Shown here piece by piece: positions 38,045 to 40,505 of a stretch of DNA of 41,320 nt. The notes beneath the pieces are model-generated. The model had not been told where the DNA came from and did not search any database. It saw only the letters and a program-made list of their open reading frames with translations. Position numbers and translations under genes: made by a program. Source of the DNA: Thermoleophilaceae bacterium (GTDB lineage Bacteria > Actinomycetota > Thermoleophilia > Solirubrobacterales > Thermoleophilaceae); the NCBI GenBank assembly GCA_016929195.1, contig JAFGJG010000040.1:1-41320 (forward strand), given 5' to 3'. How positions within the stretch are numbered: position 1 is the stretch's first letter; every line of letters starts with the position of its first letter.

Positions 38045-39868
38045 CTATCGGGCGCGAGAGTAGACCCCGTCGATGACGTCCGCGAACTTCTCGTGGACCA
38101 CGTTGCGCTTGACCTTCAGCGTCGGCGTGAGCTCGCCGGTCTCCTGCGACAGGTCGCCCGGCAGGACCTCGAAGCGCTTGATCTGCTCGACGGGCCCGAC
38201 GTGCGAGTTCACCTCGTCGACGACCTTCTGGATCTCGGCGTGCACGCGCTCGTCCTGCGGCAGCGTCGACGGGTCCTCCACGCCCAGCTCCTGAGCCAGC
38301 GCCGGAAGCTCCTCCTGGTCGAGCGTGATCAGCGCGACCAGGTACGGACGCCGGTCTCCCACCACCACCGCCTGTGAGATCCAGCGGCTCTGCTTGAGCC
38401 CGTTCTCCAGGTTCGCGGGGGTGATGTTCTTCCCGCCCGCGGTGATGATGATGTCCTTCTTGCGTCCGGTGATGAAGAGGAACCCGTCCTCGTCCAGCCG
38501 GCCGAGGTCGCCGGTGTGGAGCCAGCGATCCTCGAGCGCCTCGGCGGTCGCCTCGTCGTTCTTGTAGTAGCCCTGGAAGATGTTCGGGCCCTTGATCAGC
38601 ACCTCGCCGTCATCGGCGATCTTCACCTCCACACCCGCCTGCGGGCGGCCCACGGAGCCGAACCGGAACCCGTTGCCGGTCGGCCGGTTGACGGTGGCGC
38701 TCGTGGAGGTCTCGGTCATGCCGTAGCCCTCCATGACGGGCACGCCGCAGGCGTAGAAGAACCGCAGGATCTCCGGCGCGATCGGGGCGGCGCCCGTCAC
38801 GCACTCGCGGATCTTGCCGCCGAACAGGGCGCGGACGTTCTTGTAGAGCGCCTCCTCGGCCTTGTCGAACGCGGCCTCGAGCTCCGGGGGGACCTCCTCG
38901 CCGGCCTCCCGCGCCATGCGCACCTTCACGCCCACGTCGACCGCCTTGTCGAGCTGCTCGCGGTCGGGCGCCGCGTTCGTGGCCAGCGTGTAGATCTTCT
39001 CGAACATCCGCGGCACCGAGGGGAAGAAGCTCGGCTTGACCTCGGTGAGGTCGGGGATGATCTGCTTCGGGTCGCCGGACCAGTAGGCGAGGATCGCGCC
39101 CAGCTCGAACGTCGCGAACTGGATCAGGATCGCGAACGCGTGAGCGAGCGGCAGGAAGAGGTAGGCGCTGTCGCCCTCCTCGAGCACGCTGTCCTTGATG
39201 ACGGCGTCCGTGATCGCGCGGTAGTTGCCGTGCGAGAGGAGGCAGCCCTTGGGCGGGCCGGTGGTGCCGGAGGTGTAGATGAAGAGGCAGACGTCGTCGG
39301 GCGCCACGGCCTCGTAGCGCTTCTTCCACTCGGCCGCGTCCCGTGCGGCCCCGCGCTCGCGCAGAGCCTCGACGGAGACCTCGCCCTGCTCCGCGTCGAG
39401 CTCGGCGCCGCCCGGGTCGATCACGATCACGTGCTTCAGCTCCGGGCAGCGGGAGCGCACCTCGCGCACCTTTGCCAGCTGCTCGGCGTCCTCGGCGAAC
39501 ACCGCGCGCGAGTCGGAGTGCGCCAGCACGTACTGGCATTCCTCGGCGGAGTTGGTCTGATAGATCGTGACGAGCGCGGCCCCGGAGGTGAGGATCCCGA
39601 AGCATGCGTCGGTCCACTCGTGGCGGGTGTGCGAGAGGATCGCGACCTTCTCGCCTGGCTCGATCCCCAGGTCCACGAGGCCGAGCGAGATCTCGCGCAC
39701 GGCGCGGCCCAGCTCGTTGTAGGTGAGGTCGACCCAGGAGTCGCCCGACTTGTACCGCTGTGCGATCTGGTCGCCGTACTTCTCGGCGGCGAGCGGCAGC
39801 AGGTCAGCGATCGTCTTGGAGCCGGTGCCCACACCGGCCCCCGCCACACCGGCGGTCACAGCTTCCAT
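38045..39868 (-). CDS. Long-chain acyl-CoA synthetase (AMP-forming)
   Basis: Activates fatty acids with ATP to acyl-AMP and then acyl-CoA. The 607 residues hold the AMP-binding motif YTSGTTGPPKG, EGYGMTETS, the HTGDLGRLDEDGFLFITGR hinge and KKDIIITAGGKNI of the ANL superfamily. The length and the KVKRNVVHEKFADVIDGVYS end resemble actinobacterial FadD15-type long-chain enzymes. A -10 box TAGAAT (plus 39901-39906) and a GGAGGGAG ribosome-binding site lie upstream of the ATG. The small helix-turn-helix-like gene ends 67 bases upstream on the same strand. Confidence 0.92.
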   Translation of the reverse strand: MEAVTAGVAGAGVGTGSKTIADLLPLAAEKYGDQIAQRYKSGDSWVDLTYNELGRAVREISLGLVDLGIEPGEKVAILSHTRHEWTDACFGILTSGAALVTIYQTNSAEECQYVLAHSDSRAVFAEDAEQLAKVREVRSRCPELKHVIVIDPGGAELDAEQGEVSVEALRERGAARDAAEWKKRYEAVAPDDVCLFIYTSGTTGPPKGCLLSHGNYRAITDAVIKDSVLEEGDSAYLFLPLAHAFAILIQFATFELGAILAYWSGDPKQIIPDLTEVKPSFFPSVPRMFEKIYTLATNAAPDREQLDKAVDVGVKVRMAREAGEEVPPELEAAFDKAEEALYKNVRALFGGKIRECVTGAAPIAPEILRFFYACGVPVMEGYGMTETSTSATVNRPTGNGFRFGSVGRPQAGVEVKIADDGEVLIKGPNIFQGYYKNDEATAEALEDRWLHTGDLGRLDEDGFLFITGRKKDIIITAGGKNITPANLENGLKQSRWISQAVVVGDRRPYLVALITLDQEELPALAQELGVEDPSTLPQDERVHAEIQKVVDEVNSHVGPVEQIKRFEVLPGDLSQETGELTPTLKVKRNVVHEKFADVIDGVYSRAR

Positions 39869-39900: not shown

Positions 39901-39906
39901 ATTCTA
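39901..39906 (-). promoter_or_regulatory. -10 box of the acyl-CoA synthetase gene
   Basis: On the minus strand TAGAAT, one mismatch from consensus, 32 bases before the ATG. The leader contains GGAGGGAG, so unlike several neighbours this gene looks leadered. No -35 box is evident. Confidence 0.4.
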
Positions 39907-39935: not shown

Positions 39936-40112
39936 CTACGCCTGAAGCAGCTGCTTGCTGCGCTTGGCGTGCTTGAGACTGGAGAGGAAGAGGGTCTTGT
40001 CGATCCGGCCCTGGAATATCGGCACGCCCATCTCCATGCACTTCGAGATGACCTCGCGCCGGTGCATGCCCGCCTCCCGGCCGAGTTCCGTGGGCGTCAG
40101 ATGGATCGCCAT
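39936..40112 (-). CDS. Small helix-turn-helix-like protein, function unknown
   Basis: 58 residues, starting MAIHLTPTELGREAGMHRRE and ending in a basic Lys/Ser/Leu stretch (KHAKRSKQLLQA). LTPTELGREAGMHRREVISKC looks like the first two helices of a helix-turn-helix (small helix, Ala-Gly turn, recognition helix), followed by MGVPIFQGRIDKTLF, like the strand pair of an excisionase-type winged domain. The ribosome-binding site is the best in the window: AGGAGGA (plus 40121-40127) eight bases before the ATG. The length, start signal and clean protein-like sequence make this a real gene. DNA binding is inferred from pattern only. Confidence 0.75.
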   Translation of the reverse strand: MAIHLTPTELGREAGMHRREVISKCMEMGVPIFQGRIDKTLFLSSLKHAKRSKQLLQA

Positions 40113-40120
40113 CTAGCAGT

Positions 40121-40127
40121 TCCTCCT
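40121..40127 (-). promoter_or_regulatory. Strong Shine-Dalgarno site of the small helix-turn-helix-like gene
   Basis: AGGAGGA on the minus strand, eight bases from the ATG. It decides the start at 40112 and supports translation of a frame too short for usual gene calls. Upstream, TTGCGG and TACTCT spaced by 16 bases may be the promoter. Confidence 0.7.
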
Positions 40128-40234
40128 CGTCGCGAAAAGACCGTGAGCGGAGAGTATCGGCTGGTGGGGACGCCGCAAGCCGATTCGCGGAATTTGCGTC
40201 GTTCCCGAGTTCGGATCGTGGACGGAAGGCGGGG

Positions 40235-40247: not shown

Positions 40248-40505
40248 GTGAGCGCCAGGCGAACCGCCAAGGCCGCCGACGATCCCTTCCTCGAGTCCCT
40301 CATGGACACGAGCCTGTACTCGATGGGGGCCTTCTTCAGCGACGAGCACCCGGACCTCGTGAGCGAGGTGATCGCGCAGAGCGAGGCGATCGAGCAGGCC
40401 GGGCTGCGCGCCTACGCGGAGGAGCACGACATGACCCTCTCGGCGTGCTTCGAGACGCTCCTCACCGGCCTCGCGGTCCGGTACTACAACGCGGTGGCGG
40501 CCTAG
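40248..40505 (+). CDS. Small protein of 85 residues, function unknown
   Basis: The GTG at 40248 starts a mostly helical-looking, acidic product: a short basic N terminus (VSARRTAKAAD), then FLESLMDTSLYSMGAFFSDE, VSEVIAQSEAIEQAGLRAYA and a final ACFETLLTGLAVRYYNAVAA. No membrane helix or signal peptide. The frame is open further upstream, but only this start has a -10 box at leaderless distance. The next gene begins two bases after the stop, so both are probably one transcript. Family not recognised. Confidence 0.65.
   Translation: MSARRTAKAADDPFLESLMDTSLYSMGAFFSDEHPDLVSEVIAQSEAIEQAGLRAYAEEHDMTLSACFETLLTGLAVRYYNAVAA

What the first reader, a model, noticed from the sequence alone, without database searches (positions are those of the whole stretch)
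39936..40112. Short helix-turn-helix-like gene with the best ribosome-binding site of the window
A 58-residue protein with an HTH-like start and an FQGRIDKTLF segment stands alone before the acyl-CoA synthetase gene. It could be a mini-regulator of lipid metabolism or of the divergent 85-residue gene.
Basis: partly seen in the sequence, partly recalled or inferred. Interest (0 to 1): 0.52.

Follow-up and report, generated by a model that had tools for sequence, protein, structure and literature searches.

The report
Class-specific mini winged-helix regulator gene
A tiny, previously unnamed gene turns out to be kept by most genomes of one class of soil bacteria, probably makes a small DNA-binding switch protein that controls itself, and in related families is preceded by a nine-codon mini-gene and a transcription stop signal that look like a built-in sensor of translation.

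Summary
The 58-codon ORF is real, on the minus strand (40112 to 39936). Relatives occur in 73 of 101 related genomes and 181 of 249 genomes of its class (Thermoleophilia), and almost nowhere else in the phylum. AlphaFold2 (mean pLDDT 92.8) gives a single-domain MerR/excisionase-type winged helix-turn-helix, structurally like BldC, phage Xis, RacA and the IF2 N-terminus, though below every curated sequence cut-off. The promoter carries a conserved RTCCG element between the -35 and -10 boxes, nearly unique to this locus, which suggests autoregulation. In other families of the class the same promoter is followed at the transcript start by an 8-10 codon, apparently leaderless mini-ORF (53 of 56 loci; 2.9 expected), a covarying hairpin over its stop, and an intrinsic terminator shortly before the gene: an attenuator-like leader unknown to Rfam and, in scanned genomes, specific to this gene. 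The window's own copy keeps the promoter element but lacks the leader. The architecture resembles whiB7, whose protein family was not found in the class (0 of 61). Targets and signal are unknown; nothing is tested experimentally.

The parts
39936..40112 (-). 58-codon gene for a single-domain MerR/excisionase-type winged-HTH protein (start 40112, stop 39936-39938)
   Evidence: ORF; relatives; conservation; structure; fold
40122..40127 (-). Shine-Dalgarno AGGAGG, nine bases before the ATG
40151..40156 (-). -10-like hexamer TACTCT; its TA is among the most conserved positions of the promoter alignment
   Evidence: no consensus promoter was called here by the simple scan
40168..40171 (-). GTCC of the conserved spacer element (family consensus CRTCCG; the window reads GTCCC), proposed operator for autoregulation
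40173..40178 (-). -35-like hexamer TTGCGG
38045..39868 (-). long-chain acyl-CoA synthetase (FadD-like) gene downstream; neighbour, not shown to be a target
   Evidence: name by sequence and recall
39901..39906 (-). TAGAAT, -10-like site of the acyl-CoA synthetase gene's own putative promoter
40248..40505 (+). divergent 85-codon gene of unknown function, kept within 1.4 kb in 27 of 78 Solirubrobacterales loci
   Evidence: (no Pfam family)

Best explanation
The gene makes a 58-residue, single-domain winged-helix DNA-binding protein of the MerR/excisionase fold. It most likely binds the RTCCG element between the -35 and -10 boxes of its own promoter and so regulates its own synthesis. The window's copy belongs to a lineage in which this promoter leads straight to the Shine-Dalgarno site. 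In most other families of the class the same promoter drives an 8-10 codon, apparently leaderless mini-ORF, a hairpin over its stop codon and an intrinsic terminator, so that production of the protein probably also depends on how the mini-ORF is translated. Shown by computation: the gene family, its fold by prediction, the promoter element, the mini-ORF, the hairpin by covariation, the terminator. Inferred: DNA binding, that the element is the protein's own site, that the terminator is conditional. Unknown: further targets and the signal.
For: Family: 73 of 101 relatives, 181 of 249 class genomes; with a profile, 29 of 396 phylum genomes, 28 of these in the class. 113 distinct members: H4, T6, P7, C25, P31, G35, D38 and L41 invariant; R18 in 106, R/K36 in 112, K/R39 in 113 of 113. 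AF2 mean pLDDT 92.8, helices 7-14, 18-28, 39-57 and a beta wing between; VIA-align Z 5-8 to phage and satellite packaging proteins, Xis, BldC, RacA, SoxR, IF2 N-terminus. Promoter motif by Gibbs sampling on 89 upstream regions, 20.0 bits against 7.6-8.0 in shuffles; RTC[CGA] in the same spacer position in 44 of 56 (10.4 expected) and 18 of 23 (4.2 expected) loci of other families. Strict motif in 12 genomes: 19 matches, 4 of them this gene's own promoter, against 3 for the reversed pattern. Leader: mini-ORF in 53 of 56 against 2.9 expected, in f5 13 of 23 against 0.9; hairpin with changes on both sides in 5 of 6 pairs, and with the terminator 0 of 500 shuffles reach the covariation score; T-tract ending within 40 nt of the start codon in 49 of 56; RNA model finds this locus in 13 of 24 genomes at 28.6-97 bits and nothing else above 25.6 bits, and held-out loci, four of them of other families at 25.8-28.6 bits.
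Against: No Foldseek match reaches E 0.001 (best 0.33 in the PDB), and Z below 8 can mean only a common arrangement. No Pfam or NCBIfam cut-off is met and the PHROGs hit is weak. Sequences share ancestry, so motif and mini-ORF counts are not independent. The strict promoter pattern does not match the window itself (GTCCC, not GTCCG; G000 has 0 hits), and the simple sigma-70 scan calls no promoter here. The motif matches away from this gene (15 against 3 in the control) could be other targets or composition. The window's leader has no mini-ORF and no terminator. Alternative pairings that would make an antiterminator are not species-specific (14 of 31 and 12 of 31). The family is missing from 20 of 20 retested genomes of f4, f6, f9 and a few others, so it is not essential to the class.
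Confidence: 0.6

Rival explanations
1. It is a DNA-binding regulator of the neighbouring acyl-CoA synthetase (lipid metabolism) or of the divergent 85-residue gene.
For: The acyl-CoA synthetase gene follows in 61 of 86 Solirubrobacterales loci and the divergent gene is within 1.4 kb in 27 of 78.
Against: The operator-like element is in 0 of 76 spacers before the downstream gene, which has its own TAGA[AC]T in 28 of 76. The gene is kept without these neighbours in 23 of 24 loci (acyl-CoA synthetase) and 24 of 24 loci (85-residue gene) of other families.
Confidence: 0.12
2. It uses the fold for protein or RNA contact rather than DNA, as the CbpM J-domain partner or the N-terminal domain of IF2 do (their roles recalled); it may act at the ribosome.
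For: IF2_N is the family hit by most members (56 of 86 at E up to 1, best 8.3e-6); IF2 and CbpM are among the top fold matches; the gene's leader in other families looks translation-coupled.
Against: The window protein is below the IF2_N cut-off (13.9 against 25.3 bits). Conserved basic residues on helix 2 and the wing fit DNA, and the locus-specific promoter element needs a binder.
Confidence: 0.15
3. The terminator in the leaders of other families is a constitutive damper or the end of an upstream transcript, and the mini-ORF is a by-product of a start-like triplet at the transcript start; there is no conditional control.
For: No species-specific antiterminator pairing; f5 leaders have few T-tracts (3 of 23 within 75 nt).
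Against: Promoter and mini-ORF lie upstream of the terminator, so the gene's own transcript must cross it; the T-tract mostly ends 20-40 nt before the start codon, which leaves little room for a second promoter. Mini-ORF length is 8-10 codons in 53 of 56, and the hairpin over its stop covaries.
Confidence: 0.3

Closest known systems
BldC (Streptomyces), PMC5859096
   Same: Small single-domain MerR-like winged HTH without coiled coil or effector domain (68 residues; abstract and passages read); among the top fold matches 6ama/6amk, Z 5.7-6.0; actinobacterial.
   Different: Window protein has no HTH_17 hit and 13-14% identity in the structural alignments; the conserved site is RTCCG in a promoter spacer, not AATT-type 9-bp repeats; a separate class-wide family.
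whiB7/wblC uORF attenuators (PMC11550727, passages read)
   Same: Gene for a small DNA-binding regulator preceded by a uORF and an intrinsic terminator; actinobacterial.
   Different: Different protein: no WhiB domain found in 61 class genomes. Here the mini-ORF is 8-10 codons and apparently leaderless; a conditional antiterminator is not shown; the window's copy lacks the leader.
Leaderless short ORFs of mycobacteria (PMC4633059, passages read)
   Same: Start codon at or near the transcript start, short ORF ahead of an annotated gene, peptide sequence not conserved.
   Different: Here in another class, with a covarying hairpin and terminator, ahead of one orthologous regulator gene; transcript starts are inferred from the -10 box, not mapped.
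IF2 N-terminal domain (Pfam IF2_N) and excisionases (Xis)
   Same: Same predicted fold; weak IF2_N hits in 56 of 86 members.
   Different: Below cut-off; a stand-alone chromosomal gene with class-wide conservation.

Membership tests
BldC family | stand-alone MerR-type wHTH of about 70 residues with no other domain | tested here: met
   58 residues; AF2 model H7-14, H18-28, wing, H39-57
BldC family | sequence membership (HTH_17 model; that BldC belongs to it is recalled) | tested here: not met
   window protein: no HTH_17 hit at E up to 10; 11 of 86 members hit it at E up to 1, best 2.8e-5
BldC family | head-to-tail oligomers on 9-bp direct repeats | not testable with these tools
   needs binding assays or a complex structure
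classical MerR regulators | coiled-coil dimerisation helix and effector domain after the wHTH | tested here: not met
   protein ends at residue 58; other members are similarly short
Pfam IF2_N | score over the gathering cut-off 25.3 | tested here: not met
   13.9 bits
whiB7-type attenuated regulators | WhiB domain | tested here: not met
   0 of 61 class genomes with PF02467; the control actinobacterium rings
whiB7-type attenuated regulators | uORF plus intrinsic terminator in the leader | tested here: inconclusive
   met in other families, not met in the window's own leader
whiB7-type attenuated regulators | alternative antiterminator controlled by uORF translation | tested here: inconclusive
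   candidate alternative pairings are no better within species than swapped between species

The most novel reading that the evidence does not exclude
Thermoleophilia, in which no WhiB protein was found, carry an independent counterpart of the whiB7 switch: a MerR-type mini-protein that binds its own promoter and whose transcript is released past a terminator when a leaderless nine-codon mini-ORF is not properly translated, with the window's lineage having lost the translation sensor and kept the self-regulated promoter.
Probability: 0.25. Interest if true: 0.8.

Novelty: new variant of a known kind. Interest (0 to 1): 0.56.

Why it matters
It gives a predicted fold, a likely binding site and a testable control circuit to a small gene kept by about three quarters of the sampled genomes of a large, poorly studied class of soil bacteria. 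If the leader is a conditional terminator, it would show that the design of the whiB7 stress switch arose again with an unrelated protein, and would add a locus-specific leaderless-ORF attenuator outside the mycobacteria.

Tried and rejected
Rejected: chance ORF. Regulator of acyl-CoA synthetase or of the 85-residue gene as main role. Ordinary BldC, MerR or IF2 domain. General promoter motif: the strict pattern is rare genome-wide. Known RNA family: Rfam gave only two tRNAs in 11 sources. Antiterminator by pairing of the hairpin's 3' arm with the terminator's 3' arm, or of the mini-ORF arm with the terminator's 5' arm: not species-specific.

Led nowhere: the unguided consensus fold found only the terminator stem. 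The first mini-ORF test on Solirubrobacterales (5 of 68 against 4.0) was invalid because its promoter finder required a longer leader; it was redone from the motif positions (21 of 89 against 5.6, 12 of them start-stop ATGTAG or GTGTAG; the window has none). RNA hits below 26 bits were taken as chance. Rows dropped: f5 and f8 loci, loci without a mini-ORF and 7 leaders with long or odd mini-ORFs were left out, and of the 47 kept 31 were aligned in A2; 5 of the 31 rows are visibly misplaced in the hairpin columns and were kept in the counts. The PHROGs and NCBIfam hits are weak and unrelated. PF12728 is common in the class and says nothing on this gene. Paper searches for Thermoleophilia, Solirubrobacterales or Gaiellales with regulator, small-protein, attenuation or leader terms listed no paper on this gene; only open-access full texts are held.

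Full report
What is there. The ORF at 39936-40112 is on the minus strand and encodes 58 residues. AGGAGG lies nine bases before the ATG. Downstream on the same strand, after 67 nt, is a 607-codon acyl-CoA synthetase ORF; across 135 bp on the other strand is an 85-codon ORF, followed by a SnoaL-like gene and a tRNA-Pro. The ribosome-binding site is strong but 7th of 1500 candidate starts by a simple pairing score, not the best.

It is a gene. Relatives at E up to 0.001 are in 73 of 101 related genomes and 181 of 249 genomes of the class (135 of 177 among the better assemblies), nearly always once. The record titles of the 66 loci are mostly Thermoleophilaceae, Solirubrobacteraceae and Solirubrobacterales, so the class is Thermoleophilia. 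A profile of 86 members found 29 of 396 genomes of the phylum, 28 of them in the class; the one outside is a 25-residue match inside a 950-codon frame, probably IF2 itself (not checked). The family is missing from some class members: 0 of 20 retested genomes of f4, f6, f9 and a few others. Some f5 genomes have a second copy.

What the protein is. Of 113 distinct members, residues H4, T6, P7, C25, P31, G35, D38 and L41 never vary, while the C-terminal tail varies freely. AlphaFold2 with the 86-row alignment gives mean pLDDT 92.8 and helix-turn-helix, wing, helix. Matches are MerR/excisionase-type winged helices: phage and satellite packaging proteins (Z 6.7-7.9), Xis 6.2, BldC 5.7-6.0, RacA and SoxR 5.1-5.3, IF2 N-terminus 5.0-5.3, with no Foldseek E-value under 0.001. 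Pfam hits are weak: IF2_N for 56 of 86 and HTH_17 for 11 of 86 members at E up to 1, none over cut-off for the window protein. So: this fold, a family of its own.

Neighbours. In dereplicated loci with enough flank: a Nif3-like gene (named by recall from the sequence) just upstream on the same strand in 51 of 78 Solirubrobacterales and 7 of 24 other loci; the acyl-CoA synthetase just downstream in 61 of 86 and 1 of 24; a divergent ECF-type sigma gene (named by recall) within 1.3 kb in 29 of 78 and 0 of 24; the 85-residue gene within 1.4 kb in 27 of 78 and 0 of 24. The window lacks the Nif3-like gene there. The spacer before the downstream gene holds TAGA[AC]T in 28 of 76 loci against 0.5 in shuffles and never the operator-like element. 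Neighbourhood therefore does not name the target.

Promoter. Gibbs sampling of 89 Solirubrobacterales upstream regions gives one 32-base motif, TTG, then CRTCCG in the spacer, then CGRTA, about 35 nt before the start codon; its information content is 20.0 bits against 7.6-8.0 in three shuffled sets. The T and C of RTC are about as conserved as the -10 TA. Shared ancestry inflates this, but the same element stands in the spacer in 44 of 56 (10.4 expected) and 18 of 23 (4.2 expected) loci of other families. In 12 whole genomes the strict patterns matched 19 times, 4 at this gene, against 3 for the reversed control. A site this widely kept and this local is best explained as the operator of the gene's own product; that is inference. 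In the window the element reads GTCCC instead of GTCCG, so the strict pattern misses it, and a plain sigma-70 scan calls nothing.

Leader in other families. Reading upstream of members from families f5, f7, f8, f10 and f11 shows the same promoter roughly 125-200 nt from the gene, then in most a short ORF beginning 4-13 nt after the -10 box, then a hairpin, then an intrinsic terminator. Of 56 f7/f10/f11-type loci 53 have an ORF of 8-10 codons there, 52 ending in TGA, against 2.9 expected from dinucleotide shuffles; in f5 13 of 23 against 0.9. The peptide varies; its length hardly does. A T-tract of four or more ends within 40 nt of the start codon in 49 of 56 (f5 2 of 23; f8 0 of 5, but 5 of 5 within 75 nt). 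In 31 aligned leaders the hairpin formed by the last codons and the bases after the stop has changes on both sides in 5 of 6 pairs; with the terminator included, no shuffle of 500 reaches the covariation score, and sliding by one column roughly halves the pairing. A covariance model finds this locus in 13 of the 24 genomes searched (28.6-97 bits) and nothing else above 25.6 bits (some of these loci were in the training set), recovers held-out leaders, and reaches four loci of other families (L117, L118, L120, L243) at 25.8-28.6 bits. Rfam gave no match to it. In Solirubrobacterales 21 of 89 leaders have a very short ORF at the same place, 12 of them start-stop (ATGTAG or GTGTAG), against 5.6 expected. 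The window has none.

How it probably works. The protein binds between the -35 and -10 boxes of its own promoter. In families with the leader, RNA polymerase meets the terminator before the gene, so the protein is made only on read-through; the mini-ORF and its hairpin are placed to let a ribosome influence this. Which event opens the terminator is not shown: the pairing of the mini-ORF end with the bases after its stop is species-specific (27 of 31) but the two alternative pairings that would build an antiterminator are not (14 and 12 of 31). The nearest known design is whiB7/wblC, where uORF translation favours the terminator (PMC11550727, passages), and ilvB1 of mycobacteria (PMC13236596, passages). 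Leaderless short ORFs ahead of genes are common in mycobacteria (PMC4633059, passages). WhiB proteins were not found in 61 class genomes.

Verdict. The gene and its HTH nature are real; the proposed targets are not supported; the new and more interesting part is the conserved self-promoter element and, outside the window's order, the locus-specific mini-ORF and terminator leader.

Noticed in passing
L097-L120, L186-L245 (upstream of the family gene): Leaderless-type 8-10 codon mini-ORF, covarying hairpin and intrinsic terminator ahead of the orthologous gene in other families of the class.
   Followed up: yes
L043, L075, L079, L080, L085-L087, L089, L090, L095 (upstream of the family gene): Start-stop ATGTAG six or seven bases after the -10 box in a subset of Solirubrobacterales.
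   Followed up: partly
window 40248-40505: 85-codon gene without a Pfam family, conserved in Solirubrobacterales near the wHTH gene and often divergent from it across a Nif3-like gene.
   Followed up: partly
L053:4139-4897: Nif3-like gene directly upstream of the wHTH gene in 51 of 78 Solirubrobacterales loci; absent at this place in the window.
   Followed up: partly
whole genomes of the class: No WhiB-family protein found in 61 genomes of Thermoleophilia, though the control actinobacterium rings.
   Followed up: partly
G106:C1:2198801-2198962, G126:C35:7802-7969: Second, more diverged copies of the wHTH gene in some f5 genomes.
   Followed up: no
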